DNA of 64,000 nt, from positions 112,003,401 to 112,067,400 of the forward strand of contig CM035806.1 in the NCBI GenBank assembly GCA_020466095.1, in the 5' to 3' direction. Below are positions 1,410 to 49,803 of this stretch, piece after piece (position 1 is the first letter of the stretch; every line of letters starts with the position of its first letter). The DNA comes from Chlorops oryzae. Lineage: Eukaryota > Arthropoda > Insecta > Diptera > Chloropidae. A model generated the notes under the pieces. That model had not been told where the DNA came from. It did not search any database and saw nothing but the letters and a program-made list of their open reading frames with translations. A program made the position numbers and the translations under genes.

Positions 1410-1826
1410 TGTTGTGAGCATGCAAACATACAGCAGATTCGAGGGCTTACTGTTTGCATTAAGCTCAGCAACGAATACGGGGCAACGCAAAATGCACCCG
1501 TAAGCAGACACGGAAAGAACTGGGTCAAGACGACACACGCGGAAATGAAGAAAGAAGCGAGAATGCAGAGTGCAAGTGGAATGCACAAGAAGACCGCTGA
1601 TGCAGCAGAAGAAGAGACTGCAGCAGAGTTCGCAGCGGCGAACCTAGTTGTAAGTTATAAGTAGAGGTGAAGTTTTTAGAATTAATTAATCAAGTTTTGT
1701 GTTGGGATTTCGTGGTAACGGTCTTTAACTTCGTTGTAACCAAATTGAAAGTAAAAATACAGAAATAAAGAAATAAATGAAAATATAAAAGACATATCCT
1801 CATTTTTTATGTTGATCGGAAACTAA
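1410..1826 (+). repeat. Element A 5' LTR
   Basis: The copy begins TGTTGTGAGC and is identical by eye to 14998-15412, with no indel. A TATAA at 1656-1660 could serve as core promoter; AATAAA occurs at 1764-1769 and 1772-1777. Similarity between the copies ends near 1826, yet the PBS starts only at 1851, preceded by TTACA. The true U5 end may therefore be 1850, with the 3' copy missing about 24 bases. Confidence 0.9.
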
Positions 1827-1850
1827 AACGGTACGAGGAAACCATTACAT

Positions 1851-1862
1851 TGGCGCAGCCGG
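1851..1862 (+). other. Element A primer binding site (tRNA-Ser-like)
   Basis: TGGCGCAGCCGG follows the 5' LTR. It closely resembles the tRNA-Ser primer site TGGCGCAGTCGG of the 17.6/297 group of Drosophila errantiviruses. The family comparison is from memory. Confidence 0.75.
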
Positions 1863-2427
1863 TAGTCCAGAAAGTGCGGTTTCTGGAAAGGAAAATAAAA
1901 AGAACCAAAAAACACTCCCAAGATCCTTTAAATAAAAAAAAAAATTTATACAAGATACAGACTTGAAATTGATTGTTTTAAAGAAAATTCTTAGTGTTTA
2001 ATGAAATCTTAGCCCCCACGAAAATTTGTGCAAAATCTTTTGGTTAAAAAAGGAAGTGTGTTAAAGGCAGTTTTTCTTCATCTTTAACAATAAATCTCAT
2101 AAAAAAAAAAAAAAAAAAAAAAATAAGAAAGAAAAAAAAATATATATTATATAAATATATTAAAAGGAAAAAAGGGAAAAAGTACAAAATAAAAGAACAA
2201 TTGAAAACAAAGTGAACAAGTGACAAAATATATAAAAGGAAACAGAAATTGTAAAATAATTGAGAATTCCTTGAATATTGAATAATATTTGAATAATTGA
2301 ATTCCTTCCAAGTGTGCACGTGTCTAGTGACAACTTTAGAAGCAAGTAAAACAAAATCCAAATCGTTACATCATCGTTATAAAATCTTAGGAGCATGCAG
2401 ACAACGGAAAAAACAACGAGCAGGGCG

Positions 2428-2439
2428 ATGGCGAAATGG
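2428..2439 (+). CDS. Four-codon leader exon with splice donor
   Basis: ATG GCG AAA TGG is followed directly by GTGAGT (2440-2445), a near-consensus splice donor. If the RNA is not spliced, this frame stops three codons later and is only a seven-codon upstream ORF. If the donor is used, the exon would supply the start codon and first four residues to a downstream frame. Candidate acceptors at 4292, 10194 and 11358 all follow in phase 0. Env and ORF3 have no good start of their own near their 5' ends, which makes this exon the likely start of both. This is inferred from the sequence and not shown experimentally. Confidence 0.6.
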
Positions 2440-4292
2440 GTGAGTGCCTAAAAGTTGTAAAATTTTTTTTATATATTTTATTGTGCGTTACAAAATATAA
2501 TTGTTTTTATTAACCATAAAGTGTTGGTGAGATATAAAAAGGGGACCCTTGCGAACTTTCGGAGAACTGGGAAAGTATCAGGCTCTTGTGGATAGACGGA
2601 CCAGGATCCGTGGAGAGTGGAACAGAGTTAATTAGTGACGGTTGGTGGATCGTACCCTCGGGCAACGACAGCAACCGAACAGAGTAGAGAGGAGTGGCGA
2701 GATTACTACTCATCCAAGGGCAAGTGTCCGCCAGACTCCTCGCCATAGTGCAGGAATAGGGAAATTTCTGGGATTGGGATTGAAAATACGCCAGGAGTTA
2801 CAAGAGACCTGATCGTCAATATCGGTTATTTCATAAAGGTGCAGTCAAATAGCGATACAGTTGGCGCCGACTGACCCACCCGGAACTGCTTGCAGTTTTA
2901 AAAATATGACAATGTCACAAACCGACTAGGTGGATCCTTCATGTCTGGCTGTATAAATCTTTGACGTACCGAGGGAAAGATAATACGTTTAGCGAGCATT
3001 CCCGGATGTGCGCTGTTCATAATATCTGCCACAAATAACTGGGGGAAAAAGGAAAAATGAGAAAGAATATTTTGGTAAATATTTTATTTATATTATATTT
3101 TATTTAACATTGGTATTCGACTGACTTTCAGTGGATGCGAAACAAGGCTCAAAGCTTTTTATAAAGGAGTTATCCTGAAAATTTTTGAAGTACGACGTGC
3201 GAAAAAATAAAGAGTTCAGTTGAAGCGGAACCTTGCAGGTTTTAAAAAATTGGTAAACAAAAACCGAAAAAGCCGAACTCAAAAATTCGTAATTCATACC
3301 GCAAAAACAATTAATATAACTCAAACAAAGTTAAATTTGCCCGAAGACGTTTGTTAACGTATTCGGCCGATTTTTCTTTGATAAAGTTTTAATCCTTGAA
3401 GTAGGAATAATATTTTGTCTCCTGCCTTGCGAGCTTTATCCCTTGTGAAAAATAAGAAATTTTTAACTATCTTGAATTGAATAAACGCATTTGTTTAACT
3501 GACCTACAACGTACGTACATAGTCATCTACCTACATATCTATGTATGTAATTTTTACAATTGATTTTTAACTTCCTAACAAGCTTGTTTTAACTATAAAC
3601 CCAATTTTTCGTTCTTAGAACATGCGATTTCAATTACGCGAGAATAATATATAAACGTCCGAGATATTATTGTTTTTCCTCCATATAAAGAGCTGGACCA
3701 GAAGGCGCAGGCTGTCTTTGCAACGATTCAACTTTTTCGCTGCACTACTAGTGGAAGAAAATGCCATTAGTAGACGGGGTGTGAAGGCGAAGGAGTAAGC
3801 AAAGGCAGATACGCATTCGGTGAGCAATACTTATCGTTCTTAGAACATAGGTTAGAGAATATAGATTTTTGGACCTTTCACTGGCTAAAGCGCGCACTTG
3901 CACAAACATAGTAAGCATTTTCATTTCTTCGCTGCTATACTCGTTTCATATTAGTAAAGGGGTGTGAAATGAAAGAAGCAAAGCAATGTACAAATGCAAG
4001 CTCGATGAGCAGTGAAAGCCGACCAAAACCACAAATAAATTTTGTTGGAAATTTCTGATTGTTCGTACAATTCAAATAATTCGTTTGTTTAGATGCGAAT
4101 AAATTTGTCATTGAAACGGAACTTCGACAAAGACAAAGATAGATCGGCATTAAAGCAATGTGAAGTTTTGCAAATATTCCACTACACGCATGCATTTTTT
4201 TTTTTCTTTCCTCTTCTCACTCGAGAGATTGTAATTGCAAACGTTTTATGACATACAAAGGTCCCATTTCTTTGAACTGATGGGTACGACAG
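2440..4292 (+). other. Element A long 5' leader / candidate intron
   Basis: This 1.85-kb stretch lies between the leader donor and gag and has no convincing gene. A second PBS-like string, TGGCGCCGACTG, lies at 2862-2873. A pyrimidine-rich tract is at about 4195-4222, a CTGAT branch-site-like string at 4277-4281, and a candidate acceptor CAG ends at 4292, nine bases before the gag ATG and in frame with it. A 23-base A-run (2101-2123) lies just upstream of the donor. Many short upstream ATGs would hinder plain scanning to gag. Confidence 0.45.
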
Positions 4293-4301
4293 GGCGACTT
4301 A

Positions 4302-6383
4302 ATGGAGGAGAGTAAACACTATGTGGAGTCACTAGTTAGAGAAGCGAAAAGTTTTTCGGAGGACGTAGGAAAATTAAAGGAACTGTTGTGGGATTTAATT
4401 GTACAGAAAGACAATAATAAGGAATTCCTCGAACTAACTAAAAGTAGACTCAGAGAGAGCCAGGGCCGTGGACAGTCGGTTTTCAAAGAATTCGAGGTAT
4501 TAATTGAGGTATTGGCGGAGCTGAGTGAGTGCCAAGACCGGGTACATTCCGAGGCAGAATTAGAAAAATTTAAGAAACTGAATAATAGTTTGAAAGCCCA
4601 TGAGCGTAAATTGAGGGATGCACTGCGGAAATCAGACGAATGTCTAGTAGAATTGGAACAGGAGAATGAACATCTGAGACAGGCACTACGGCAGAGGTTT
4701 TCAGACGAACAATTGCAGCTAATAGTGGACAGTCAGAACGCAATAAAGAGTTACAAAGAAGAAGTCAAGAGTTTAAGAGAACAATTACGTGTGAGCAGGA
4801 AGGAAATAGATAGAATAACGAAATTTAAGTCAGTGAGTCTTCCCCGAGAAGAACAGGATACGCCTAGTGAAGATAGCGAAACCATTAGGGAGAATAAGAG
4901 AAGCCTCGCCCCGGGTAGTTCAGTTACTGTACGTCCTAGAAATACTTTAGAAAACATAGAAGAAGAGGCCATGGCTACCCACTCATCACCACTAGCAGGA
5001 AAAGGGAGCGGGGGAGATCGACCTCCAATGATTCCACCGCCACCACCTCCACCTTTAAACGCACCAGGCATAAATATGAGTGCGGGAGCCCTCCAATCAA
5101 GCACATCCGGTATAAATAAAAGTACGGGGGTTCTACAGGCAATGCGGGAACAGCTTGAAGGGGTATTTTCTGGAAGAAAAGAAGTAGAGAATGCCAGAGA
5201 GGCAAGGGATCAAGGACAACGAATGAATACTTTGTTATCGCCCATCAGCAGCCAATCAGAAAGAAGGGATGGCATGACGGGAGCCTCCATAATGAAGCTA
5301 GTGGAAACTTTCGTGCCACTATTTTCAGGGACACCCAGCCCGGAGCTACGGTCAGATGTGTCGAAATTCATTAGCGGATGCCAGTTCTTGGGGAACGAAT
5401 TAAGAAGAGAAGATACTGAGAGAGCGGTGCAGTATATAGTGAAACAAAGACTGCTAGGGGGGGCATACCAAAGGCTGGGTGCCAAACGATTTAGAAATAT
5501 CGATGAATTATGCGAATTAGTGAAGGATATTTACCTAAGGAGAAGAGACATAGAGGATATCCAGGAAGAGATGATGAATATGAAACAGGGGATGCGGGAG
5601 TCCGTGATTTTGTTTGGGATGAGAATTGAGAGTTTGCTAGACGAAGCGGAGACAGTAGTGCGAGATGCTTTGGGAGACATGGGCATGATGAAGTTCTTTA
5701 GGAAACTGGCAGTTAAGGCATTCGTGAAAGGAATGAGGGACCAATCTCTCCGCCACGTTTTCATTGGCCATGAGGAGGATTCAATAGGTCAGTTAGTGAG
5801 CTTAGTCCAACGGTCAACGATCCTGTTAGGAGAAAACGGGTCGAACACGAATTATACAGCTAACACGAGCTATACAGGACTTGGTGGGACGATGGGTTCC
5901 GTTCCAGAGGAGATAGTTGTAAACCACCCGGAACGCCCTTCGATACCCTGCAGTTTTTGTAAGAAATTGGGGCATTTCTATGTGAACTGCGAGGTACGAC
6001 TAAACACTCCTTACTGCAGACAGTGCAAGACATACGGACACGAAGAAACGAATGACTGTCACCAGCAGAAAAAATCCACCAGGGAGTCTGGGGAGCCGCA
6101 TACGAACCCTTTGCTTTGCACGTTCTGTAAAAGGGGGGGGCATATAGTAGATAAATGTTTCGAGCGACTGAAAACATTATTTTGTGAGCGTTGCCAGACA
6201 CCCGGACACGAACAGAATCGATTTTGTCGGGGACAAGCAGGCGGACAGATAGACGCGCAGCGCCCCAGTGACCGGCGGAACGTGTGCATGAGGTGCAATC
6301 AGCCAGGTCATTGGGCTAGGACGTGCCCTTTGGGTAATGCGACCCAATCGGGAAACGCGAGGGGGCCCAGCTCGAACCAATAA
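4302..6383 (+). CDS. gag: Element A Gag
   Basis: A 693-residue structural protein. The N-terminal 170 residues are charged and heptad-rich, predicting coiled coil. A proline run (about 245-252) follows. A capsid-like helical region lies at about 330-490. The nucleocapsid holds five zinc knuckles between residues 550 and about 675, alternating CX2CX4HX4C and CX2CX4HX5C; the first two and the next two look like a duplicated pair. The ATG at 4302 is chosen because it is the first in the open frame, although a spliced start upstream is possible. The last 30 bases carry the frameshift signal for pol. There is no internal stop, so the frame appears functional. Confidence 0.9.
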   Translation: MEESKHYVESLVREAKSFSEDVGKLKELLWDLIVQKDNNKEFLELTKSRLRESQGRGQSVFKEFEVLIEVLAELSECQDRVHSEAELEKFKKLNNSLKAHERKLRDALRKSDECLVELEQENEHLRQALRQRFSDEQLQLIVDSQNAIKSYKEEVKSLREQLRVSRKEIDRITKFKSVSLPREEQDTPSEDSETIRENKRSLAPGSSVTVRPRNTLENIEEEAMATHSSPLAGKGSGGDRPPMIPPPPPPPLNAPGINMSAGALQSSTSGINKSTGVLQAMREQLEGVFSGRKEVENAREARDQGQRMNTLLSPISSQSERRDGMTGASIMKLVETFVPLFSGTPSPELRSDVSKFISGCQFLGNELRREDTERAVQYIVKQRLLGGAYQRLGAKRFRNIDELCELVKDIYLRRRDIEDIQEEMMNMKQGMRESVILFGMRIESLLDEAETVVRDALGDMGMMKFFRKLAVKAFVKGMRDQSLRHVFIGHEEDSIGQLVSLVQRSTILLGENGSNTNYTANTSYTGLGGTMGSVPEEIVVNHPERPSIPCSFCKKLGHFYVNCEVRLNTPYCRQCKTYGHEETNDCHQQKKSTRESGEPHTNPLLCTFCKRGGHIVDKCFERLKTLFCERCQTPGHEQNRFCRGQAGGQIDAQRPSDRRNVCMRCNQPGHWARTCPLGNATQSGNARGPSSNQ

Positions 6384-6389
6384 GCTGGG
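6350..6389 (+). promoter_or_regulatory. -1 ribosomal frameshift signal of element A
   Basis: GGGAAAC at 6350-6356 is in the Gag frame as G-GGA-AAC, the canonical X-XXY-YYZ phasing. After a nine-base spacer, CCCAGCT (6366-6372) pairs perfectly with AGCTGGG (6383-6389) across a ten-base loop. The pol frame opens at 6338, after a TAA at 6335, so the shift must occur in the 6338-6383 overlap, exactly where this signal lies. Pol is in -1 relative to Gag, as required. Confidence 0.85.
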
Positions 6390-9300
6390 GTACCCCAAAT
6401 TTTAGAGAAATAGGAAACTTTGAGACTACCAAAGAAGAAAAACAGAAAAGAGTTAGATTTAGAGAAGACGTAGAAGTGAATATCATAAGCCGGTACATAT
6501 CCGGAGGGGGGAGATTACGACTACGGGGGAAAATGGCTGGAGTGTCGGCAGCATACGCAAAGAAGGTTCGAGAGAGAGAGTCGGAGGGGGAAATAACAGA
6601 AAGAGGACCTATAGCTTCGGTAGGAGTTGGAGAGTCAACTGTTGGGGAAGATATTTTTATTAGGATACCCTGTGAGCAGGCAGTTAATGGAGAAATACTG
6701 CTGCTAGTAGATACAGGCGCGGATACGAGTTTAGTGAAGCAAGGAGTATTGCGTCGGGGAGTAAAGTTAGATTCAAGTGTGAGGAAGTGGCTCACTGGAG
6801 CATTTGGAGGGGGAGTGACCACGGAAGGGAGAGTACAGATTCGACACGCGGACACTAGTTTACAGTTCAATTTGCACGTAGTGAGTGGAGATGAAGGTTT
6901 ACCCGCAGATGGACTGCTGGGGAGGGACGTTTTATGGCATGGAGCCACCATAGACACTCGACGGGGGATTCTTGTTTTAGACTCGCCAAGGGGAGGCGAG
7001 ATAACTTTTAAATTAACAAATAGGCGCAGGGAGAATAGAATAGGCATAGTAGAACAAATAAAAATGCCAGCTAGGACCACGGGCGTGGTAAAAATACGCG
7101 TGGATTCGTCCGACGGCAATATTGTAATACACAAGAAGGAGCTAGAGACAAACTTGTTTTTAGGAGAAGTACTCACGTCTGTTAGTAGTGGGATAGCGTA
7201 CGCACCAATTTTGAACGCCCAGGACACAGCAGTGTTAGTAAAACCTGTAGAGATTAGGTTCACACCGGCAGAACAGTTCCACGAAGTAACGGCCGGCGGT
7301 TCTGATAAGAATGCCGAAACGGAAAATAGGATAAACGAAATCATGCGTGTGTTACAAATAGACCCCAACTTGACCGCAGAAGAACGGCATTCTATAGAGA
7401 ATGTCGTAAAAAATTTTAGTGACGTTTTCCAAATAGAAGGGGAGGCCCTCACTTATACAGATGTATTAACACACGATATCCCTATCGGGCCAGGGGTAGC
7501 TCCTATTAACAGAAGACAATATAGATTACCGGAAGCCCACAGAGAGGAAATTAATAGGCAGGTTCAGGACTTATTAGACCAGGACATAATAGTGCCCAGC
7601 ACCTCGCCTTGGAACTCTCCAATCATACTGGTGCCCAAGAAATCGGCGGATAGCACCATCAAAAAATGGAGATTAGTAGTCGATTTCAGGCAATTAAACG
7701 AGGTTACCTTGAAAACGGTGTTCCCCATTCCAAGGATTGACGAAATTTTAGACCAATTAGGACGAAGTAGGTATTTTTCTACCCTCGATCTGGCCAGCGG
7801 TTACCACCAAGTCTTGGTGGACGACAGAGATAGGGAGAAAACCGCGTTCAGCACGGGCACGGGACATTACGAGTTTAAGCGTATGCCGTTTGGCCTTACA
7901 GGGGCCCCAGCAACCTTTCAACGGATTATGAATAGTGTGTTAACAGGATTACAGGGAATTGATTGCTTTGTATATTTAGACGACATCGTCGTTTATGGTA
8001 GAAATCTAGCTCAGCATGAGGAGAGACTGTCGCGGGTTCTGCAGGCCTTGCGGGTCAGCCGTCTGAAACTGAAAACAGAGAAATGCCATTTCCTACGTAA
8101 AGAGGTAGTCTATTTGGGCCATCATTGCTCGGAAAAGGGGGTGTCGCCAGATCCAGGTAGGGCCGAGTGCGTCAAAAACATGCCAGCTCCCCGCAATGTA
8201 AAAGAGCTCCAGGGGGTCCTCGGCCTTATAAACTACTATCGAAAATTCATTCCCAGTGCTGCCCGACTTATGCTGCCAATGACGAAACTTCTGCGGAAGG
8301 GTGCCAAATTTAAGTGGACGGTGGAGTGCCAGACCGCACTGGATTGCCTAAAGGAGGCCATAATTAATCCACCGGTACTCCGCTATGTCGATTTCTCTAA
8401 ACCAATTCGTCTAACGACAGATGCCAGTGGTGGCGCGTTAGGGGCAGTATTGTCTCAAGAGGAAGGGGAGGATGAATTTCCTCTATATTTCGCAAGTAGA
8501 GGTTTAAGCGAGACTGAGCTCCGCTATTCGACAATTGAGCGAGAATTTTTGGCAATTGTATGGGCCACCAAAGTATTTAGGTCCTATTTATTGGGTAGAA
8601 ATTTTACAGTGGTGACGGACCACAAGCCTCTAAAGGGGATAGCGAATTTAAAAGACCAAACTTCCCGTTTAGCTAGGTTCCGCCACAAACTTTCTGAATT
8701 TGATTTCAAAATAGTTTACAAACCTGGAAAGGAGAACTTAAACGCTGACGCGTTAAGTAGAATTCCCCAGGATTCACGTGCAACTACTGTTAACGTAATA
8801 ACCAGGGCTCAAGCAAGGGACGTCCAAACTAAGGAGTCAGAGACCGGAGTCCATCCAGTGGGCAAAGAGCCCCCCAACGGGTCCGCTAATGAGAATAGAA
8901 AAAGGGCAAAATTAATTGTCGAAAATCAGGTCCAATTCCTCGAGGACCGGGATCAGATAAAAGAAGTATTGAAACAATTCCACGACTCCCCATTGGGAGG
9001 GCACCGAGGAGTCACTGGTACGTGGCATCGAATTCGGCGCCAATATCGCTGGGTTAGAATGAGGAGCGAAATTCGCGATTATATCAGGGCCTGCCCCAAA
9101 TGTCAGAAAAATAAATCAGGTACCGAGGAAAGGGCTCCCATGCAGATAACAGACACATCCACGCTCCCTTTCGAGAAGGTCTTCATGGACATAGTCGGGC
9201 CGCTACCAGTAACAAGTAGTGGGAAGAAATACATCCTGACCTTCCAGGATGACGTGTCAAAGTACATGGCATGTGTAGCTTTAGAGGACGCAGAAGCATC

Positions 9301-10030
9301 CACGGTGGCCCAAGCATTTTTTTCCGAAATTATCGCACGGTTTGGCATTCCAAGAAAATTGGTTACCGACAATGGTACCAACTTCATGTCGAATTTATTC
9401 AAAAGCGTTTGTAAGATTTTAGGTATAAAAAAATTACACACCAGTCCATATCACCCACAGGCGAACGGCGCTTTAGAGCGAAGCCACCGACCCCTAGCAG
9501 AATATCTGCGAAATTTTGTTAACGAAGACGGAACCAACTGGGACCAATGGCTGTGCTACGCAATGTATGTACACAACCACACCCGACATGCCGCCACTCA
9601 ACAAACACCGACCGGAATACTGTACGGATTTGACGTGGACATGCCGACAAACTTAACAAAAACAACAGAACCAATTTACAATTCCGAATATTACCCTGCC
9701 CTCATGAAGTATCAACTTCAACGATCACATGAGTTGGCCAAGGAGACCTTAGGAAAAGCTAAGGTCCTATCTAAAAAACGTTATGATCAAGGAACACGTT
9801 CTAAAACCTTTAAACAAGGTGACTACGTATTAATTAAAAACCATGCGAGAAAAAATAAGCTCTCCCAACTTTGGGAGGGGCCTTTCATAGTAATTGGGGT
9901 CCCGGGCCCCGTAAACGTAATTGTTAAAATACGCGGACGAGATAAAACCTATCACGTCAATTCGGTTAAACGTTTTGTACCAAAACCTAATAAAGGCGAC
10001 TCAGAGACGCTTGGGTCCTCATCACAATGA
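6356..10030 (+). CDS. pol: Element A Pol (protease, RT, RNase H, integrase)
   Basis: About 1,224 codons read after the -1 shift. The apparent first codon of the open frame after 6470 is GTG, so independent initiation is unlikely. The protease DTG is at 6710-6718. The reverse transcriptase has LVVDFRQLN and the YLDD catalytic box at 7973-7984. RNase H begins near TTDASGGALG. The integrase has an HHCC zinc domain (H..H, CPKC), then catalytic Asp at 9188, Asp at 9368 and Glu at 9476, giving D-D-35-E spacing. A GPY/F-like tail (LWEGPF) ends the protein. No stop interrupts it. Chromodomain features are not seen. This is a complete Ty3/gypsy polymerase and appears catalytically competent. Confidence 0.95.
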   Translation, partial: REGAQLEPISWGTPNFREIGNFETTKEEKQKRVRFREDVEVNIISRYISGGGRLRLRGKMAGVSAAYAKKVRERESEGEITERGPIASVGVGESTVGEDIFIRIPCEQAVNGEILLLVDTGADTSLVKQGVLRRGVKLDSSVRKWLTGAFGGGVTTEGRVQIRHADTSLQFNLHVVSGDEGLPADGLLGRDVLWHGATIDTRRGILVLDSPRGGEITFKLTNRRRENRIGIVEQIKMPARTTGVVKIRVDSSDGNIVIHKKELETNLFLGEVLTSVSSGIAYAPILNAQDTAVLVKPVEIRFTPAEQFHEVTAGGSDKNAETENRINEIMRVLQIDPNLTAEERHSIENVVKNFSDVFQIEGEALTYTDVLTHDIPIGPGVAPINRRQYRLPEAHREEINRQVQDLLDQDIIVPSTSPWNSPIILVPKKSADSTIKKWRLVVDFRQLNEVTLKTVFPIPRIDEILDQLGRSRYFSTLDLASGYHQVLVDDRDREKTAFSTGTGHYEFKRMPFGLTGAPATFQRIMNSVLTGLQGIDCFVYLDDIVVYGRNLAQHEERLSRVLQALRVSRLKLKTEKCHFLRKEVVYLGHHCSEKGVSPDPGRAECVKNMPAPRNVKELQGVLGLINYYRKFIPSAARLMLPMTKLLRKGAKFKWTVECQTALDCLKEAIINPPVLRYVDFSKPIRLTTDASGGALGAVLSQEEGEDEFPLYFASRGLSETELRYSTIEREFLAIVWATKVFRSYLLGRNFTVVTDHKPLKGIANLKDQTSRLARFRHKLSEFDFKIVYKPGKENLNADALSRIPQDSRATTVNVITRAQARDVQTKESETGVHPVGKEPPNGSANENRKRAKLIVENQVQFLEDRDQIKEVLKQFHDSPLGGHRGVTGTWHRIRRQYRWVRMRSEIRDYIRACPKCQKNKSGTEERAPMQITDTSTLPFEKVFMDIVGPLPVTSSGKKYILTFQDDVSKYMACVALEDAEASTVAQAFFSEIIARFGIPRKLVTDNGTNFMSNLFKSVCKILGIKKLHTSPYHPQANGALERSHRPLAEYLRNFVNEDGTNWDQWLCYAMYVHNHTRHAATQQTPTGILYGFDVDMPTNLTKTTEPIYNSEYYPALMKYQLQRSHELAKETLGKAKVLSKKRYDQGTRSKTFKQGDYVLIKNHARKNKLSQLWEGPFIVIGVPGPVNVIVKIRGRDKTYHVNSVKRFVPKPNKGDSETLGSSSQ

Positions 10031-10177
10031 CCCAAGGGCTCTCACGCATATCAAACGTCTAGTATAAGATTTCCCATATAACTACATAATTAATGAAAAA
10101 ACAGTATAATCGCTTATTTATCATAAACGGTGGTGGGTATACACACGTTGTAGTGATAGGAAATATATGACGAAAAA

Positions 10178-10194
10178 TTAACATTTATTTTCAG
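10178..10194 (+). promoter_or_regulatory. Candidate splice acceptor before ORF3
   Basis: A T-rich run ending in TTTTCAG at 10194 lies at the head of the ORF3 open frame. The following base begins a codon in frame with ORF3 and in phase 0 with the leader exon ending at 2439. Confidence 0.55.
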
Positions 10195-11094
10195 ATTAAG
10201 AAGCTTGAAGACGTCGGCGCTTGGTCCCTGCGTTTGGTATCGACCATGTACGAGGGGAGGAAAGAAGACGCCAACACAGCCCTCGAAAACCTCGCCGTCC
10301 TCCACGACCATTTACGGCCAGATAAGTCGCATTTGATCCGGAGCCGGAAGCGAACAAGCGAATGCGCGGGCCCCAACCGTTGCCGAAAGTGCAGGAGGTG
10401 CATTCGCGATAGGCTAAATAATCATGCGCAATATAAACGAATGGCCGGCTGGGGAACATATTTGGTCGAGGAGTACATGAAGGACGTAGAGGTATACTTC
10501 ATAGACGGTGCCAACATCGCCGCCACGGCAACGCTCGTCAAGGTCATCGAGGCGAGCCTGCGCGAGTGGCATACCTCTACATACTTCGGGGACGGGGACG
10601 AGGGGCACCGCGAGCGTATCCGGAACCTAAAAAACGAGTCATTTAGGTATGAGGAGACCCTAAGCTTCCGAGCGAACGCCATCGCACTTGCGCTGCCCGA
10701 AATTTTAAGAAGAATTACCAATGAGGAACGAACCGCCGCCCGGGACCGAAATGGACTCATTCCACGTCGTGGGTTGGAGGTTCAAAGAAAGAGGGGCATG
10801 AGACTGCCACGCAGCAAAAGTGCAGATCGGTCCTACGAGTGGGGACCCAATGAAGAGTGGGACGCGTACGAAACGGTTCAAAAGGCTCTCCAACATTACC
10901 GGAATAAACTAGAAATGGTTGACATCATGGCGAAGTTGGATTGCTCGTTCACAATGATTGTGGACGGCGTGGTCGTAGAAGTCCACGAGCCAACGTACGA
11001 AATAGGAGACCTGTTTTTCGTGACCTTCTTTGGTCTTTTTCCCACCGAAATAAACGCCCCTCTGGCCAACATGTATAAAGATAATATTAGTTAA
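10195..11094 (+). CDS. ORF3: unrecognised basic protein between pol and env
   Basis: The frame is open from the acceptor to TAA at 11094, about 299 codons; the first internal ATG is at 10246. I recognise no family. Near the N terminus is a cysteine cluster with spacing CX5CX2CX2C (SECAGPNRCRKCRRC) within an Arg/Lys-rich stretch, suggesting metal or nucleic-acid binding. A mixed helical region follows, then a basic patch (RKRGMRLPRSKS). The C terminus is more hydrophobic, with VVEVHEP and FFVTFFGLFP. Standard insect errantiviruses place env directly after pol, so this frame is extra. It probably is expressed from a spliced RNA. A regulatory or RNA-binding accessory role is a guess from position and charge only. 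Confidence 0.7.
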   Translation: MKKLEDVGAWSLRLVSTMYEGRKEDANTALENLAVLHDHLRPDKSHLIRSRKRTSECAGPNRCRKCRRCIRDRLNNHAQYKRMAGWGTYLVEEYMKDVEVYFIDGANIAATATLVKVIEASLREWHTSTYFGDGDEGHRERIRNLKNESFRYEETLSFRANAIALALPEILRRITNEERTAARDRNGLIPRRGLEVQRKRGMRLPRSKSADRSYEWGPNEEWDAYETVQKALQHYRNKLEMVDIMAKLDCSFTMIVDGVVVEVHEPTYEIGDLFFVTFFGLFPTEINAPLANMYKDNIS

Positions 11095-11358
11095 GTTTTT
11101 AAAAAATATTTAGTTAAGTTGAAAAGAAAAAAAAAAAAAAAATCATATTTAAAAAAAAAAAAAAAAAATACATAATAATAATAATAATAAAGCTATTCAA
11201 AAAAAAAAAAACGGCGTTCCAATTTTTGTTTCATCCTCGTTATCACTGTAAGAAGACTTTATTAACAGAGAAAAAAAAAACGTTGTTCAACTGGATCAAC
11301 TCACCTACGGGGGTCCAGTTACCGAAATGTCTCTACACCTTTTTTTTTCTCCTTTCAG
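11095..11358 (+). other. A-rich spacer ending in the env splice acceptor
   Basis: A-runs and an ATA/ATAA repeat occupy 11120-11210. A pyrimidine tract at 11341-11355 ends in TTTCAG at 11358, a strong acceptor. The next codon is in the env frame and in phase 0 with the leader donor. No other gene is seen here. Confidence 0.65.
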
Positions 11359-12834
11359 CTCCTGGTCCAAGTAGCCCTTTCAATTTTGCCGCTCGTCAAG
11401 TCCCACCAACTACTTTACCTGGAAAAAATAGAGACGGAAACCGGTTTTGCGGAAATACACACGGGAACAGTGGATATTGTCACTAGGTTCGACTACATAC
11501 TCCATCAGATAGATCCAGCTGCGGTCCGCACTATGCTGAACGCGTTCCTGGACACCAAGAAAACTCTCAATAGTAGCATATATGACGCATTAATTGAAAC
11601 CCAAGTTGACGATATTGATTCCATGCTGCACACGTTCGGTCGATCAAAAAGAAGTCCATTCGACTTCATTGGTTCCAGCCTCAAGTGGTTATTCGGTACT
11701 ATGGATGCCAGCGATCGACAAAATGTAGAAGACCACCTCGCCACTGTAGACGTCAACAACCATAGGCTTATTGAAAACGGCAACCACCAGATCAAGATTA
11801 ACCGCGATTTTAGTGAGGCCCTAGAAAGTATGAGACAACTAGTGCAAGCCGATCAGAAGGCACTGACCGACATGAGAAAAATTAACTCTCAATCCGCTAG
11901 GGAAAACCGGGCAGACGAACTGGCACTCAGGCTATTCCTGAAAATCCAGCTACTGCGCAACCAAGTAGAGACGATTCAGCAGAATGTAGCAGCAGCAAGG
12001 ACGGGCATTATCCACCCCTCCATGCTCTCGAAATCCGAGATAGAACAGTATGACATAGGTTTCGAAAAGCTGAAAGATATGGCATTAGGCGTAGCCTCGC
12101 TACAGGACGGAATCATAATTTTCGTAATTAAGGTGCCCGCAGTGATGGGACAATTTCAGAAGAAATTGTTGGTACCGATACCGAACAGACATGGACAACA
12201 AATAAACGAAGAAATCGAGACGATTATCGAAAAGGACAACCAGACGTACACTTTTGAGGAAGGCAAGTCAGTTTTTGCACTACACCGGAGTACGAACTGT
12301 ATCGTTCGAGGACGTTGTGAATTAGTTAGCCGGACAGAAGAAGAAATAATTGAACTAGAAGAAAGCACAATACTCCTAATAAACGCAAGAAACATAAGCC
12401 TAAATAGTACATGCGACAGTAGGCGTATATTAGCTTCAGGAAATTTTTTTTTAACGTTCCAAAACTGCACCGTCTATTTAGGAAAATTCAGATTTGAATC
12501 AAAAATACGGGAATATAGGCAGATGTTTATCATTCCCAACGAGAGGCAGTTAGAAAAGGCGGAAGAAATACCAAGCTTTAAGGAAGTGGTCTTGAAGCAA
12601 TTCGAAAATAACGAGGAAATAAAAGAATTAAAGTTTCAGAAAAAACTTTTGAGTATTGGAGGAATAAGTCTAACGGGGGTTATAACCATAATAGTTATTT
12701 TAGTAATATGCTGTTTCTGTAAATTACGGAAACGAGCACAGAACCCAAGGCCACTCCCGCGCCCACGATCGTCGGACCCAATATCTACAATAGACGCTAT
12801 GTTAACGAAGTACGAAACACCGTTTAACGTCTAA
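11359..12834 (+). CDS. env: Element A Env, baculovirus-F-like fusion glycoprotein
   Basis: The frame has no ATG near its start and opens directly after the splice acceptor with a hydrophobic stretch fitting a signal peptide. A furin-type site RSKR lies at 11641-11652, about 98 codons in, followed by a hydrophobic glycine-containing segment of fusion-peptide type. This short-N-fragment, long-C-fragment layout is that of baculovirus F proteins and errantivirus Env. A heptad-rich region follows. A C-terminal membrane anchor lies at about 12652-12720, with a basic, proline-rich cytoplasmic tail of about 35 residues. The frame has no stop, so an infectious or cell-to-cell stage is conceivable. The start most likely comes from the leader exon at 2428. 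Confidence 0.88.
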   Translation, partial: LLVQVALSILPLVKSHQLLYLEKIETETGFAEIHTGTVDIVTRFDYILHQIDPAAVRTMLNAFLDTKKTLNSSIYDALIETQVDDIDSMLHTFGRSKRSPFDFIGSSLKWLFGTMDASDRQNVEDHLATVDVNNHRLIENGNHQIKINRDFSEALESMRQLVQADQKALTDMRKINSQSARENRADELALRLFLKIQLLRNQVETIQQNVAAARTGIIHPSMLSKSEIEQYDIGFEKLKDMALGVASLQDGIIIFVIKVPAVMGQFQKKLLVPIPNRHGQQINEEIETIIEKDNQTYTFEEGKSVFALHRSTNCIVRGRCELVSRTEEEIIELEESTILLINARNISLNSTCDSRRILASGNFFLTFQNCTVYLGKFRFESKIREYRQMFIIPNERQLEKAEEIPSFKEVVLKQFENNEEIKELKFQKKLLSIGGISLTGVITIIVILVICCFCKLRKRAQNPRPLPRPRSSDPISTIDAMLTKYETPFNV

Positions 12835-14978
12835 CATAACGTCTAGTAAAACAAGCAAAAACACCTTTTCATTTGAAAACAAATTTTACATTCGCCTCTG
12901 CACTCTCAGTGCAGCCCTTATTCAAGATACACTGAAGCGCTCAAACGCCCTTAAGTCAATGCACTTTGAGAACCTAGGACAACATTTTACGAACGAAGCG
13001 AAAAGAAAAAGAAAAGAAGATAAAATAAAAAACAAAAAAAAAAGAAAATGCCAAGCGAATTCAAAAATATTTTTTTTTTCTCTCTCTCTTCACTTTGTTT
13101 ACGTCAAAAACTTTTTTTTTGTGTCTTTTCTGCGCGTTCATCGCCCTTTTTCTTCGTTTTGTTTATTCAAAAAGGAAAAAATATATATATATATACAAGT
13201 TCTAACACGAAAAAGAAAAGACACATCCGTTCAAGAAGGGGGGCGAGCTACGTAAAAGAAATTTTTATATATTTAGAGCTACATTAAGGAAATTATTATA
13301 TATTTAGAAAATGCAACCGCCACGCAGGCCTATTAATGGCATTTAAATAAATATGTTTGTATAAGGAGATGCACTAGTCACGCCTAAGACTCACCGCTAG
13401 TGCCTCTCTCTTTTTGAATGTGTGTGGCATACATTTTCAACGCTGGCCCAACGCCTGAACGCGTATTTCACGGAGTGTTTGGCATTTTATATTAATGCCC
13501 GTTCCGTTCCGCATTTCTATTTTTTTATTATAACTTCTATTTTGTTTTTTTTTTTCTCCCTTCACGTCTATTTAAACTCTTAAACACTTTAACCACTTAC
13601 TTTAACCACATTAACTCGCACATAAAACAAATACAAATAATAAAAATAATACAAACTAACAAAGAAATAGAAACGCAAAACAACCACCGCGTCTATTGTA
13701 CGAGAACTAAGGCTACCATACCAACGCTCATGCGCACACAACTAAGTCAGAATCTACCACGAAATTTTTCAGAAACTACCATGATAAATGTTTAGTAGAA
13801 TTCCTCGGGAATGTTTTTGTGTCCATAATATTTCGGGCAAATTGATTTGACTTATTTGGTGCTGCAGTGCTCCTTTCCTTTTTCTCTTCTTTCTCTTTCT
13901 CGTCGAGCTGTCGTTCAAATTTTAGAAAACGGCAACACGACAAATAATGGACCTGTGTCCATACGAACAAATAGAAACGACCCAATAGGGAAAAGAAGAA
14001 ACACAGAGTCGGTGACCAGTTCCATAAAGTGGGGAAGTTGACAAAGTAAAGTTTGTTTTATTTTATAATTATGTTAACGTAACGTAATAAAGTTTTGTTG
14101 AATTTAACGTTGTATAACAAAATTTAGATCAAATTACTTTAAGTTCAAGGGACAGTCGTTTAGGTTAGCATTAAGAACAATATGTAACGAAATAGAAGTT
14201 TTCGGACGTATAAAGTAGGGGAGAATACGGGTAGAATAAGGACAAATTATATACATAAAAAAAAAAAAGAATAAAATAATAAAAAAAAAAATAAACAAAA
14301 GAAAAAAAAATAAAAAAATAAAAAAAACAAAAATATAAAAAAAAAAACACAAAAAAAAACAAACACAAAAAAAAAAAAAACAAACAAAATTATCAAAAAA
14401 AAAAGTATTTGTCAAAATAAAAAGATAAAAATTATTTAATTATACAGTAACGACAGCTGCGAGGGATCCGGCCGTATAACGACAGCAGCGAGGGATCCGG
14501 TACAACAACGAGTACAGCGAAGAATCAAGATATACACGGCGCGATATGTGCCGTAACGTGTAACTACAATAAGCAACGGCCGAATTGCCTTGGCCAGCAA
14601 TATGCACAACTAATGCCAAGGTCAATTAACAAATAAAGCAACGGGCTACAAGGCCAAGAGCATAGCCATACCACAAAACAAACCAGGCGTTAAAAGCTAG
14701 ATGACAGAGGGCCCCCGCAAATGGTAACCAACGGCACCTCCGCTAGTCTGGCACAAGAAATATCAAATACAACTGCAAGCTAAAAATTGGAACCCCCGAC
14801 GTCATAAAGTTGTTCGGTTGTTGTTCGAGAGCGTTGCATGTTCAAAGGCGTGAAGTGGTTAAATTGAGACAACACTACATCAAAATGAAGAAACTGCGGT
14901 ACAACCCCGAGACCAACAGATCTGAAACAAGCCCCTCTCCAAACAACAAACCGGTCCGCATAAATGCGGACCCATCGC
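12835..14978 (+). other. Element A long 3' noncoding region
   Basis: About 2.1 kb without a convincing gene. It contains an A-rich tract (about 14260-14405), a TA run (13180-13194) and two near-identical copies of a 26-base unit containing GCGAGGGATCCGG at about 14452-14503. Long apparent frames in the A-rich tract are low-complexity artefacts. Such a long gap between env and LTR is unusual and could hold regulatory DNA or decayed sequence. Confidence 0.5.
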
Positions 14979-14997
14979 AAAAAAGGGGGGGGAGGAA
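14979..14997 (+). other. Element A polypurine tract
   Basis: Six A then eight G plus purines lie immediately before the 3' LTR, the expected primer site for plus-strand synthesis. Confidence 0.8.
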
Positions 14998-15412
14998 TGT
15001 TGTGAGCATGCAAACATACAGCAGATTCGAGGGCTTACTGTTTGCATTAAGCTCAGCAACGAATACGGGGCAACGCAAAATGCACCCGTAAGCAGACACG
15101 GAAAGAACTGGGTCAAGACGACACACGCGGAAATGAAGAAAGAAGCGAGAATGCAGAGTGCAAGTGGAATGCACAAGAAGACCGCTGATGCAGCAGAAGA
15201 AGAGACTGCAGCAGAGTTCGCAGCGGCGAACCTAGTTGTAAGTTATAAGTAGAGGTGAAGTTTTTAGAATTAATTAATCAAGTTTTGTGTTGGGATTTCG
15301 TGGTAACGGTCTTTAACTTCGTTGTAACCAAATTGAAAGTAAAAATACAGAAATAAAGAAATAAATGAAAATATAAAAGACATATCCTCATTTTTTATGT
15401 TGATCGGAAACT
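14998..15412 (+). repeat. Element A 3' LTR
   Basis: Identical by eye to 1410-1824, with no gap (constant offset 13588). It ends at AAACTA next to element B sequence and is 24 or more bases shorter than the distance from the 5' LTR start to the PBS. Confidence 0.9.
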
Positions 15413-15415
15413 AAC

Positions 15416-28081: not shown

Positions 28082-29375
28082 ACAGGTTGGCTGATAAGTA
28101 CCCGGTCTAACAAAGAAAAACACATTTTTTTGTCAAAATTCGGTTTTATTATTCAACATAGTTCCCTTCAAGAGCGATACAACGATTATAACGACCTTCC
28201 AATTTTTTGATACCATTTTGGTAGTACTCCTTTGGTTTTGCCTCAAAATAAGCCTCAGTTTCGGCGATCACCTCTTCATTGCAGCAAAATTTTTTCCCTG
28301 CGAGCATCCTTTTGAGGTCTGAGAACAAGAAAAAGTCGCTGGGGACCAGATCTGGAGAATACGGTGGGTGGGGAAGCAATTCGAAGCCTAATTCATGAAT
28401 TTTTGCCATCGTTCTCAATGACTTGTGGCACTGTGCGTTGTCTTGGTGGAACAACTCTTTTTTCTTCTTCATATGGGGCCGTTTTGCCGCGATTTCGACC
28501 TTCAAACGCTCCAATAACGACATATAATAGTAACTGTTGTTGGTTTTTCCCTTCTAAAGATAATCGATAAAAATTATTCCATGCCCATCCCAAAAAACAG
28601 AGGCCATTACTTTGCCAGCGAACTTTTGAGACTTTCCACGCTTCGGAGACGGTTCACCGATCGCTGTCCACTCAGCCGACTGTCGATTGGACTCAGGAGT
28701 GTAGTGATAGAGCCATGTTTCATCTATTGTCACATATCGACGCAAAAACTCGGGTGTATTGCGAGTTAACAGCTGCAAACACCGGTCAGAATCATCAACA
28801 CGTTGTTGTTTTTGGTAAAATGTGAGCTCGCGCGGCACCCATTTTGCACAGAGCTTTTTAATATCCAAATATTGATGAATGATATGACCAACACGTTCCT
28901 TTGATATCTTTAAGGCCTCTGCTATCTTGATCAACTTCATTTTACGGTCATTCAAAATCATTTTGTGAATTTTTTTGATGTTTTCGTCGGTAACCACCTC
29001 TGTCGGGCGTCCACTGCGTTCACCGTCCTCCGTGCTCATTTCACCACGCTTGAATTTTGCAAACCAATGAATTATTGTTGATTTTCCTGGGGCAGAGCCC
29101 GGAAACTCATTATCAAGCCAAGTTTTTGCTTCCACTGTATTTTTGCCCTTCAGAAAACAGTATTTTATCAAAACACGAAATTCCTTTTTTTCCATTTTTT
29201 TTCACAATAACAAAAGTTGCTTCACAAAAGACGCTCTATCTCACAAACTAATTGACTTACAGACGTCAAATTTTGACACGAATCATTTGAAGGTTGCCAC
29301 TATATAAAAATAATATGCATTTAATACTAGCGACGCCATCTATGTGTCAGACCGGGGACTTATCAGCCAACCTGT
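28082..29375 (-). mobile_element. Mariner, irritans subfamily (Himar1-like), 1.29 kb
   Basis: TA on both sides (28080-28081, 29376-29377). Inverted ends start ACAGGTTGGCTGATAAGT and resemble the Himar1 ends. The left end has ACCCGGTCTAAC and the right CCCCGGTCTGAC. It was inserted into the Tc1 transposase. Confidence 0.95.
28149..29195 (-). pseudogene. Mariner transposase, one nonsense codon
   Basis: From the ATG at 29195 to the stop at 28149 there are 348 sense codons plus one internal TAG, the family length. The N-terminal paired HTH region (KYCFLKGKN) is followed by WVPREL, where Himar1-type proteins have WVPHEL. The catalytic Asp residues are in TIDETW, HQDNAQCH and YSPDLVPSDFFLF, spaced as DD34D. 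The only block is TAG at 28554-28556, in the same frame, where relatives carry Glu. The copy is otherwise nearly intact, so it was probably active recently. Confidence 0.93.
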
Positions 29376-31071: not shown

Positions 31072-32940
31072 TTATTTTAAATTTTTATTAAAAAAAATTA
31101 TTTTTTTAAATTTTTCGCTGAGCAAACGATTGCGTCTTTCTTCAAGTATTCGGCTTGAAGCCGAAAAAACGCACTCACATGTTGCTGAAGACGGTGGTAT
31201 CGAAAGAATTTGTCGGGCAAGTTCTTGCAATAAATTTAGCTCTTTGTTATTTTTCCAAAAAACAAGAATAGGCTCAATATCAAATATTTCCTTTTTCATA
31301 TATATTTCCAATTGCTTGTCGATCTCACTTCTTTCTTTATTTTTAGCAAAAGATGAATCTAAGAATTCAACAAACTGATTAGAGCCAATACTATTGAAAT
31401 CTGATTTTTTGTTTTCAGATTCTTGTTCACAATGTTTGGGCTTATTTTGATCAATATGACTAAGCATTGATTTAACAGTTTCTAAAACATGTTTGCGATT
31501 TTCTGGGGATAAGCAGTTAAGCTCTTTAAAAGGAGGATTTAAAAATAGAGCAACATAATGAATAGTATTCGGTTCAAAACGGTTCTCTAGTGCATTTTTG
31601 GTTATAATTTTGATTTCCTTTATTACTCCGGATTCTAAAGGATCTAAGCTGCAAAGATTTATAAGTTTTTTATACCACAATGCATATTCTTGTATAACGG
31701 GCTCATTTTCAGAACTCAAGCGCTCGGAACATTCCTTGAACGGTTTCAAGAAATCAATAATGTTTTGTAGAAGGAAAAATTCGATATTGGCAATCTTATT
31801 CAAATCGTTTCTATCCAATAAAATTTTTTGAATTTCCCTATGACTTTCTAAAATACTATTTAACATAGTAAAAATTGAATTCCACCTGGTTTTGACATGT
31901 TGTTTTAATGATTTTCTCAATTTGCTGTTTAGCTCAGAGTGCTTAAAATAAGCTGCTAACGCTTTAGAAGATTCTATCAATAGCTTTAGCTCTCGAATAT
32001 TTGCTTTTTCGAAAACATCGTTCATGACCAAATTCAGATTATGACAAGCGCAAGATAATCGCTTGTAGTTTTTGAAAGCAGCCTTAACATTGGCACCATT
32101 CTCCGTAACAAAAATAGAGGCATTGTGAATACTTTCTTCTAAGTGATACTCATTTAAAATTCCAATTACCAGATCTAAAATATTTGCTCCAGTCTTTCTT
32201 TCCGGTAAGAATTCACGGTTCGCCAAGACGTTTACTATTAGGTTGAAGTCTGATGAAATGTAGTGGGCAGTCAGAGTAAGAAAGCTACGCTGTGTGTATT
32301 CGTCAGTCCACATATCTGTAGTACACGCAAGATGTTCTTGGAAAAGCTTTTCCTTTATGGATGTCTTTGCCTTTTCAAATTCTTCGGACAGGACGGAATT
32401 CGAAATAGTTTTCCCCGATTTTAACAAATCACCAACTTTTTGTTTCCCATATTTTGCTCCAATATTTATGAGCTCTTGCGAAAGCTCCAAAAAACCTTCG
32501 CCTAAGATAGGAAGTTTATTTTAAAAGCATTAATATTTATATAATTTATTTTTTTGTCCAAAACAATTACTGTCGAAAACATTGAACGGCCTCAAATCCT
32601 TAACAACGAATAAAAGTTGCTTTCTTGATACATTTTCGAGAACATTTTGTGGCACATCTTTTTTATTAAAAAAATCGTCCAAGGTTTTATTTGTGGAAGC
32701 GTTTATGGTGGCTAATTTGGCGCACCGATGCCGGTGCAAACCTCCAGTACCAATACGCACCGATTGGGAAATCAATTCCTTGCATTTCTTACAGCACGCA
32801 AATTCTTGCTGTACACCATGTACGAATACGGCATCAAATCCTTCCCAAATCTCACTTTTTGCATTTTTTGGTGCTTTCAACTGGACTTTTGGATCACCAG
32901 CAGAAATTTTCTTTTTGAATTCTAACTTTGTCTGAGACAT
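31072..32940 (-). CDS. hAT transposase, two exons, apparently intact
   Basis: Exon 1 (32940-32571) starts at ATG and carries a BED zinc finger (CCKKC ... HRHRC). A 69-bp intron (32570-32502) has a GTAATT donor and CTTAG acceptor. Exon 2 (32501-31072) has the catalytic and insertion domains (CTTDMWTD, then CHNLNL) and the C-terminal hAT dimerisation motif (PPSSATCECVFSASS). The spliced length is exactly 600 codons including the stop, and the joint restores the conserved segment at the exon boundary. No internal stop is seen. It should bind the TAGAGATGGGC ends and cut and paste the element. The 5' end of the gene is near the right TIR, which may supply the promoter. Confidence 0.9.
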
Positions 32941-48466: not shown

Positions 48467-49218
48467 TGTGAGGACTCACAAAATCCACCGACCATCATAT
48501 CTGTAGATATTGTTTAAATTTTTTTTTATATTATAAATTTCTCTTTATATTATTTAATTCACTCTTATAATAAATATTAGTAAGTACGTAGGAACAACAC
48601 TAACGATAAGAAGTAGGTAAAAGTTATCGAATGGTAGGTTTAAATTATAATTTGGTAGATTTAAGGAAAACGTAAGATTGGCTTTTGTATATGATAGCAT
48701 CTAAACAAGGAACAGTTATGAGTAGGCGTACGAATTAGAATAGTATAAAGAATGATTGCCACCATTTAAAGTCCTAGGTTTAAGTATTTCATAGCCCATA
48801 ATTTGGGAAATATGTTTGTAACTGCGTGTAAAGAGTGACTAACGCCGAACAGCTGAACTCACTATGCAGAAGACCAAGAGTGGCAACACAACGAAAAGGG
48901 AAGCGAAGCGCTCTGCTAAGAGTTCGAAGTCACGATTGACTTCACTTGTTCCTGAGCACCCGAAACGATCGGACCGATCCCAACGTTTGGAACCAACACG
49001 GAAACGAATAGCGAGGAACACGACGAGGAGCCCCAAGCAAGCATCACGAATCATCCAGACGGAAAGAAACGAGAAATAAGGAAGCCAACCAAACGAAACA
49101 GGAAGAGGAACGGAGAGACGACGTCAGCAACAAGTCAGAGTGGTGAGATAACTTAAAGAAATTTGCAAGAATTATTTCACGTACTTTCGTGGCGGAACGA
49201 GGTTTTTTTTACGGATTA

Positions 49219-49803
49219 AATTCAGGACCTTATACCCGTTTCCACGCACAGTTGAAACTTGCGTGCGATTCAGGTTATTCTAGTAGTTACCACGTGCAGT
49301 TGAAACTCACGTGTGCCCAGAGGAAATATCTATTCAATTCAGGACCTCATACCCGTTTCCACGCACAGTTGAAACTTGCGTGCGATTCAGGTTATTCTAG
49401 TAGTTACCACGTGCAGTTGAAACTCACGTGTGCCCAGAGGAAAGATCTATTAAATTCAGGACCTCATACCCGTTTCCACGCACAGTTGAAACTTGCGTGC
49501 GATCCAGGTTATTCTAGTAGTTACCACGTGCAGCTGACACTCACGTGCGCCCAGAGGAAATCTCTATTTAATTCAGGACCTCATACCCGTTTCCACGCAC
49601 AGTTGAAACTTGCGTGTGATCCAGGTTATTCTAGTAGTTACCCCGTGCAGTTGAAACTCACGTGTGCCCAGAGGAAATATCTATTCAATTCAGGACCTCA
49701 TACCCGTTTTCACGCACAGTTCAAACTTGCGTGCGATTCAGGTTATTCTAGTAGTTACCACGTGCAGTTGAAGCTCACGTGTGCCCAGAGGACCCATTGG
49801 GGT
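49219..49803 (+). repeat. 117-bp tandem array, 5 units (5' LTR)
   Basis: Each unit contains two hairpin-forming modules, CACGCA-CAGTTGAAACT-TGCGTG and CACGTG-CAGTTGAAACT-CACGTG, sharing the core CAGTTGAAACT. The unit is a multiple of three and stop-free in one frame, so the array reads through as a 39-residue repeat, but it has no ATG. Confidence 0.9.

What the first reader, a model, noticed from the sequence alone, without database searches (positions are those of the whole stretch)
2428..11358. One four-codon exon may start three proteins of element A by alternative splicing
ATG plus three codons ends in a GTGAGT donor at 2440. Acceptor-like CAGs end at 4292 (before gag), 10194 (before ORF3) and 11358 (before env). 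Each continues in phase 0 with its frame, and the env frame opens into a signal-peptide-like stretch that lacks its own ATG. A single mini-exon feeding Gag, ORF3 and Env would be a multi-message strategy more like complex retroviruses than the single env splice known from gypsy.
Basis: partly seen in the sequence, partly recalled or inferred. Interest (0 to 1): 0.87.

Follow-up and report, generated by a model that had tools for sequence, protein, structure and literature searches.

The report
One start exon, two retroviral proteins
A gypsy-like endogenous retrovirus appears to make its envelope protein and an unknown accessory protein by splicing the same tiny exon, which carries the start codon, onto two genes that lack dependable starts of their own; a third fusion proposed for Gag is not supported.

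Summary
Element A (1410-15414) is an errantivirus-like LTR element with gag, pol, an unfamiliar ORF3 and env. The donor (after 2439) scores best of 636 GT sites and the env acceptor (11358) best of 971 AG sites. In the host's own genome 37 of 37 alignable leader copies keep ATG 2428 in phase 0 with the donor and 36 keep the GT. YAG is kept at the env acceptor in 27 of 28 and at the ORF3 acceptor in 13 of 17 alignable copies, window included. In a second lineage (ORF3 about 43% identical) six full-length ORF3 frames begin directly after TTTAG, first Met residue 86; two leaders there end MAILKKM| and METLMKM|, again phase 0. ORF3 is mostly under purifying selection. Gag differs: acceptor rank 282 of 971, own ATG, and only 10 of 20 fetched copies in phase. 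One start exon probably serves Env and ORF3, not Gag. No RNA data were available.

The parts
1410..1826 (+). 5' LTR (part shared with the 3' LTR)
   Evidence: 417/417 identical to 14998-15414
14998..15414 (+). 3' LTR; lacks the 24 bases that lie between the shared part and the PBS at the 5' end
1851..1868 (+). primer-binding site TGGCGCAGCCGG..., tRNA-Ser-like (assignment recalled)
   Evidence: sequence
2395..2439 (+). start mini-exon coding part, MQTTEKTTSRAMAKW, with in-frame ATGs at 2395 and 2428; phase 0 at its end
2440..2445 (+). splice donor GTGAGT
   Evidence: rank 1 of 636 GT; GT kept in 36 of 37 alignable copies
4276..4292 (+).
   Evidence: 52 exact genome copies, 0 for the reversed control; variable spacing to the gag ATG
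4302..6383 (+). gag with its own ATG
   Evidence: zinc-knuckle matches below cut-off
6350..6356 (+). GGGAAAC -1 slippery heptamer in the right phase in the gag-pol overlap
   Evidence: downstream fold z -2.24
6338..10030 (+). pol (protease, RT, RNase H, integrase)
10175..10194 (+). ORF3 splice acceptor AAATTAACATTTATTTTCAG
   Evidence: rank 25 of 971; YAG kept in 13 of 17 alignable copies, window included
10195..11094 (+). ORF3 coding exon, 299 aa, Cys-rich accessory protein of unknown family
11339..11358 (+). env splice acceptor CTTTTTTTTTCTCCTTTCAG
   Evidence: rank 1 of 971; YAG kept in 27 of 28 alignable copies, window included
11359..12834 (+). env coding exon, opening into signal-peptide-like LLVQVALSILPLV; Pfam Gypsy env
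   Evidence: PF07253 E 1.3e-20, PF12259 E 1.4e-5

Best explanation
Element A is an errantivirus-type endogenous retrovirus. A short 5' exon downstream of the primer-binding site carries the AUG (2395 and/or 2428) and ends in phase 0 at a strong donor. Unspliced RNA is the genome and, by inference, the Gag and Gag-Pol message (own Gag AUG at 4302, -1 frameshift at GGGAAAC). Splicing from the one donor to 11358 gives Env its start and the head of its signal peptide; splicing to 10194 gives the start of ORF3, a conserved accessory protein. Competition between the two acceptors and no splicing would set the ratio of genome/Gag-Pol, ORF3 and Env, as in complex retroviruses. Shown: sites, phases, their conservation across copies and in a diverged lineage, lack of other dependable starts, selection on ORF3. 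Inferred: that the RNAs exist, that this donor is the one joined to ORF3, and how Gag is translated.
For: Donor 1 of 636 and env acceptor 1 of 971 in a scan of the whole element. Composition changes at the ORF3 acceptor: GC 0.28 and 0.25 in the two 60-base bins before 10200, 0.58 in the two after; the codon score of 10195-10248 is reached by 116 of 1739 open noncoding windows, suggestive only. Only 1 ATG between PBS and 2395 against 9.1 expected (0 of 2000 shuffles as low). Leader copies: ATG2428 in phase 0 in 37 of 37 alignable, GT in 36, GTGAGT in 32 (from the 41 matches). Env acceptor YAG 27 of 28, ORF3 acceptor YAG 13 of 17. ORF3's own ATG is absent in 7 of 17 aligned copies, 6 of which keep the YAG. 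Lineage II: of 15 loci examined, 6 have a 306-311 aa frame starting right after TTTAG, first Met residue 86, so no ordinary start; leaders L058 and L059 end MAILKKM| and METLMKM| at donors ranking 1 of 203 and 1 of 184 GT sites. dN/dS of ORF3 is 0.15-0.29 in 14 of 18 within-lineage pairs.
Against: No RNA evidence at all. The ORF3 acceptor is only moderate by score. Codon scores of exon 1 (reached by 328 of 2071 noncoding windows) and of the first 31 env codons (100 of 854) are not distinctive. Same-genome copies share ancestry, so counts within a lineage are not independent, and leader copies were found by similarity. Of 19 stretches fetched by coordinates in search of leaders, 5 held the pre-gag motif and 4 a phase-0 leader, only 2 of them lineage II; the rest missed or were rearranged. 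dN/dS is 0.71-0.84 in 3 of 15 lineage II pairs and 0.53 in lineage III. The one lineage III leader examined (L144) shows no GTRAGT donor with a phase-0 ATG, and the env of L077 seems to need another phase. Two copies with open env lack a full ORF3 frame upstream (L051, L052). ATG depletion continues into the first part of the proposed intron (2440-3057: 4 against 12.4). Most ORF3 copies are broken.
Confidence: 0.8

Rival explanations
1. The start exon serves Env only, as in ZAM and Beagle subclades; ORF3 is spliced from a different donor (for instance within gag or pol) or translated some other way.
For: Env splice from a short exon upstream of gag is published, and the Idefix subclade splices from within gag (PMC12992720). 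A GT at 5993 is open in phase 0 from the gag ATG and ranks 9 of 636.
Against: At 5993 L058 and L060 read GA instead of GT; L059 did not align there. ORF3 acceptors are phase 0 like the exon in lineages I and II. The exon-1 donor is the best in the window and in the two lineage II leaders scored.
Confidence: 0.15
2. One reading: the exon also starts Gag by splicing to 4292, removing a 1.85-kb leader intron.
For: CAG in phase 0 here; 19 upstream ATGs in 2440-4301 make scanning to 4302 awkward; the CAG sits in a 17-nt motif conserved between lineages; the codon score of 4281-4301, just before the gag ATG, is reached by only 42 of 3245 noncoding windows, though just three of those seven codons lie after the CAG.
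Against: Acceptor ranks 282 of 971, and 327 of 525 antisense AGs score as well; no clear pyrimidine tract; spacing to the gag ATG is 9, 10 or 11 nt (10, 8 and 1 of 20 copies, 1 without ATG), so the phase is lost in many; Gag keeps its own ATG in 19 of those 20. Gypsy is reported to have IRESs (PMC4276936 passages), so a leader splice is not required.
Confidence: 0.06
3. ORF3 is not a working gene, and its acceptor and phase are chance or relics.
For: No relative found outside this genome by protein search; most copies broken.
Against: 113 matching stretches in the genome falling in at least five diverged groups, long open frames, dN/dS 0.15-0.29 in 14 of 18 within-lineage pairs; the frame starts at an acceptor-like YAG in groups I, II, IV and V and in 2 of 3 group III loci (L077 differs).
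Confidence: 0.06

Closest known systems
ZAM and Beagle subclades of Drosophila insect endogenous retroviruses (PMC12992720: passages, and section 7 whole)
   [quoted passage not shown] F-type env; tRNA-primed.
   Different: What I read reports one spliced product, env. Here a second gene, ORF3, appears to share the exon.
gypsy (PMC2585583 and PMC4276936, passages)
   Same: Splicing creates the env start codon; LTRs, gag, frameshifted pol, env.
   Different: In gypsy the splice joins AT to G to make the codon itself; no ORF3 of this kind appears in those passages; here whole codons come from the exon, phase 0.
LTR elements with extra ORFs between pol and env, and bdelloid rotifer ORF3s (PMC6431247 and PMC5408684, passages)
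   Same: Capture of ORFs between pol and env is known in LTR elements, and rotifer ORF3s are stated to be expressed from spliced messages.
   Different: The rotifer ORF3s are GDSL, DEDDy, env-like or TM proteins; no shared start exon is described in the passages seen; this ORF3 has no significant Pfam match.
Complex retroviruses (PMC3185809, search listing with start of abstract only; details recalled)
   Same: Extra genes made from alternatively spliced messages.
   Different: Unrelated proteins, a Metaviridae-type element, and no regulatory function shown.
Avian leukosis/sarcoma viruses (recalled)
   Same: Env takes its AUG and first codons from an upstream exon by an in-phase splice.
   Different: There the donor lies in gag, so Gag and Env share codons; here the exon is upstream of gag and separate.

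Membership tests
Errantivirus (gypsy/gypsy insect endogenous retroviruses) | Paired LTRs and tRNA primer-binding site | tested here: met
   the 3' LTR ends 24 bases short of the 5' LTR-to-PBS stretch; tRNA assignment recalled
Errantivirus (gypsy/gypsy insect endogenous retroviruses) | gag with zinc knuckles, then pol in order PR-RT-RH-IN in the -1 frame | tested here: met
   RVT_1, RNase H and integrase above cut-off; knuckles PF00098 20.4 bits (cut-off 20.8), PF13696 22.5 (27) and protease PF00077 20.6 (20.7) all below it; GGGAAAC in phase
Errantivirus (gypsy/gypsy insect endogenous retroviruses) | F-type env gene | tested here: met
   PF07253 73.8 bits (cut-off 27.5), PF12259 24.4 (24.1); RSKR furin-like site read in the sequence
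Errantivirus (gypsy/gypsy insect endogenous retroviruses) | Spliced subgenomic env RNA | tested here: inconclusive
   splice signals and their conservation only; no RNA
Errantivirus (gypsy/gypsy insect endogenous retroviruses) | Pol phylogeny within the gypsy/gypsy clade | not tested
   no named reference Pol sequences were at hand
Complex retrovirus-like expression | Extra gene made from an alternatively spliced message | tested here: inconclusive
   sequence evidence in two lineages; no RNA
Complex retrovirus-like expression | Extra gene is conserved and under selection | tested here: met
   4 of 18 pairs show weak or no constraint (0.53-0.84)
Complex retrovirus-like expression | Accessory or regulatory function (transactivation, RNA export, counter-defence) | not testable with these tools
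   no significant family match; single-sequence model mean pLDDT 36.6, unusable

The most novel reading that the evidence does not exclude
This genome's gypsy-like elements evolved a complex-retrovirus way of life on their own: an ancient Cys-rich accessory gene between pol and env, started by the same mini-exon as Env in two lineages, and in two further lineages turned round so that it is read from the antisense strand, with its own poly-T/CAG acceptor, much as HBZ of HTLV-1 is read antisense from a spliced start exon (HBZ recalled).
Probability: 0.35. Interest if true: 0.88.

Novelty: new variant of a known kind. Interest (0 to 1): 0.7.

Why it matters
Insect endogenous retroviruses are usually described as simple: gag, pol, env and one splice. 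A conserved, selected accessory gene that borrows the Env start exon would make them a second, independent case of complex retroviral gene expression, and would give a concrete gene in which to look for counter-defence, for example against piRNA silencing (a guess). Because the genome holds many copies and several diverged lineages, the claim can be tested directly with ordinary RNA data.

Tried and rejected
Gag fusion: rejected on phase and acceptor strength. Relatives outside the genome: scans of viral contigs with env, pol, gag, the env alignment and ORF3, and of genome contigs with the env alignment, gave no confirmed relative. Env found 2 proteins without genomic context at 30-32% identity that begin after the signal-peptide region and so say nothing on the splice. 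ORF3 gave nothing by single sequence or by alignment among predicted proteins and nothing significant in Pfam, NCBIfam or solved structures. Structure of ORF3 from one sequence: useless, no fold search made. A target-site duplication for element A was looked for by eye in the flanks and not found. Lineage III leader: unresolved. A start for ORF3 at its own ATG 10246 was rejected because that ATG is not conserved and the six full-length lineage II frames have none near their start; loss in broken copies alone would not prove it. Papers: the searches listed no report that I recognised of an errantivirus accessory gene between pol and env sharing the env start exon; the library is open-access only, and one directly relevant paper (Chary and Hayashi 2025) was not held.

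Full report
What is there. Its LTRs agree in 417 of 417 bases, it lies inside an older Ty3-type element on the minus strand, and it holds gag (own ATG 4302, to 6383), pol (6338-10030, -1 frame, GGGAAAC at 6350 in the correct phase), ORF3 (open from 10171) and env (open from 11266). Pfam finds RT, RNase H and integrase, a protease just below cut-off, and the Gypsy env family, and nothing significant for ORF3. A primer-binding site TGGCGCAGCCGG lies at 1851.

The observation. All three junction phases are as stated. Two things were missed. First, ATG 2395 is in frame with ATG 2428, so the mini-exon reads MQTTEKTTSRAMAKW. Second, the three acceptors are very unequal. With an approximate matrix recalled from general knowledge, the donor is the best of 636 GT sites in the element and the env acceptor the best of 971 AG sites (none of 525 antisense AGs scores as well); the ORF3 acceptor is 25th, but the best between 9900 and 10500; the gag acceptor is 282nd. 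Between PBS and 2395 there is 1 ATG where dinucleotide shuffles give 9.1 (0 of 2000 as low; CAT is not depleted, GTA slightly); depletion also holds in 2440-3057 (4 against 12.4) and 3058-3675 (4 against 8.6) but not in 3676-4292 (10 against 10.0). That favours scanning to the mini-exon and speaks neither clearly for nor against a leader intron.

The host genome as a test. The genome holding the window (unnamed, 442 Mb) could be searched from then on. The leader query gave 41 matches: the window, two already held, 36 newly fetched, one that does not reach the donor, and one fragment of a fetched copy. Of the 38 copies examined besides the window, 37 align at the donor. All 37 keep ATG 2428 in phase 0, 36 keep GT, 32 keep GTGAGT exactly, and 28 have ATG at the position aligned with 2395. 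In several of the most diverged copies the only alignable part of the query is about 50 bases round this exon end.

Env. Of 40 matches to the env acceptor region, 30 were given as loci; 28 align at the site and 27 keep YAG (window included). The signal-peptide-like start is kept in most of them (LLVQVALSILPLV here, LLVQVALIIFPFI in the diverged copies). In the window the first Met after the acceptor is residue 59. Env therefore needs a start from upstream. This mode is published for ZAM and Beagle subclades (PMC12992720, section 7), so here it is a new member of a known kind.

ORF3. Of 18 matches to its acceptor region, 17 align at the site, window included; 13 keep YAG, 4 do not. The inner ATG 10246 is ATG in 10 and something else in 7 of the 17; these are mostly broken copies, so decay is possible. 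The decisive material is a second lineage, about 43% identical in ORF3. Of 15 loci examined, 6 (L045, L046, L047, L053, L083, L085) have a 306-311 codon frame that begins directly after a TTTAG acceptor whose own TAG closes the frame upstream, and whose first Met is residue 86. Such a frame has no ordinary start. That acceptor ranks 1st or 2nd among AGs of the surrounding stretch in the four copies scored. Leaders were harder to reach: of 19 stretches fetched by coordinates, 5 held the pre-gag motif and 4 a leader with a phase-0 ATG and a GTRAGT donor, two of lineage I (L061, L064) and two of lineage II (L058, L059). The lineage II exons read MAILKKM and METLMKM, phase 0, first by donor score of 203 and 184 GT sites. 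L059 has another type of primer-binding site, TGGCGCCCGAGC; none of the types searched for was seen in L058. For L058/L053 and L059/L045, leader and ORF3 pieces belong to the same elements by coordinates (gag to ORF3 about 6.0 kb in each).

Is ORF3 real? It has 113 matching stretches in the genome, many of them pieces of one copy, in at least five groups, I-V. Within-lineage dN/dS is 0.28 (I, one pair), 0.16-0.29 in 12 and 0.71-0.84 in 3 of 15 pairs (II), 0.53 (III) and 0.15 (IV). Invariant positions among six I-III proteins include C57, C66 and H77 of the window protein, in a basic, Cys-rich patch. No relative was found among about 5.8 billion proteins, nor anything significant in Pfam, NCBIfam or solved structures; how well those collections cover insects is not known to me, so this does not show that ORF3 is confined to one species.

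Gag. The CAG at 4292 sits in a motif, ACTRATGGGTACGACAG, found 52 times exactly in the genome and never in the reversed control. I fetched 20 of the 52: the gap to the gag ATG is 9 in 10, 10 in 8, 11 in 1, and in 1 the ATG is ATA. In the 9 copies with a 10- or 11-nt gap a splice there would run into a stop. Since Gag keeps its own ATG and the motif itself holds an overlapping ATG, the motif looks more like a translational or RNA element; that is a guess.

Limits. There is no RNA. Copies are related, leader copies were collected by similarity, and the splice matrix is approximate. Lineage III did not give a clear leader: one copy examined, no GTRAGT donor with a phase-0 ATG. In lineages IV and V ORF3 lies on the strand opposite to pol and env in the copies examined (one each with pol, env and ORF3 placed, L080 with L142 and L081 with L143; one more, L079, with env and ORF3 only), so it cannot share their start exon there.

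Verdict. One start exon for Env and ORF3 is likely (0.8). The kind, an endogenous retrovirus with env spliced from a short upstream exon, is known, and extra ORFs between pol and env are known in LTR elements (PMC6431247 passages); a conserved accessory gene on the same start exon is, as far as the listed searches show, new.

Noticed in passing
L079, L080, L081 with L142, L143 (ORF3 at L080:825-1517 +, L081:949-1536 +, L079:127-819 -): In two diverged lineages the ORF3 homologue sits between pol and env but on the opposite strand; its frame still begins at a poly-T/CAG acceptor in phase 0. Possible antisense gene; no transcript seen.
   Followed up: partly
4276-4292 and 52 genome copies: ACTRATGGGTACGACAG just before gag is strictly conserved while its surroundings diverge; it holds an ATG, and in the copies with ATTTATTTTA after it (10-nt gap) the short frame from that ATG ends in TAATG overlapping the gag start.
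   Followed up: partly
1827-1850 and 15414: The 5' LTR and PBS are separated by 24 bases absent at the 3' end, and no target-site duplication was recognised; either the LTR is longer and its 3' copy is trimmed, or the PBS is spaced.
   Followed up: partly
6319-7452 (-): Open frame of 378 codons antisense to the gag-pol junction; not examined.
   Followed up: no
48467-56983 (+): Another Ty3-type element with a 1055-aa pol frame (51732-54896) and direct repeats about 6.5 kb apart, accompanied by 117-bp and 62-bp tandem repeats.
   Followed up: no
38359-39402 (-): Serpin gene or fragment (PF00079, E 2.2e-82); mariner- and hAT-type transposase frames at 28557-29201 and 31075-32520.
   Followed up: no
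L051, L052: Copies with a 491-codon open env frame but no full-length ORF3 frame in the 1.5 kb upstream.
   Followed up: no
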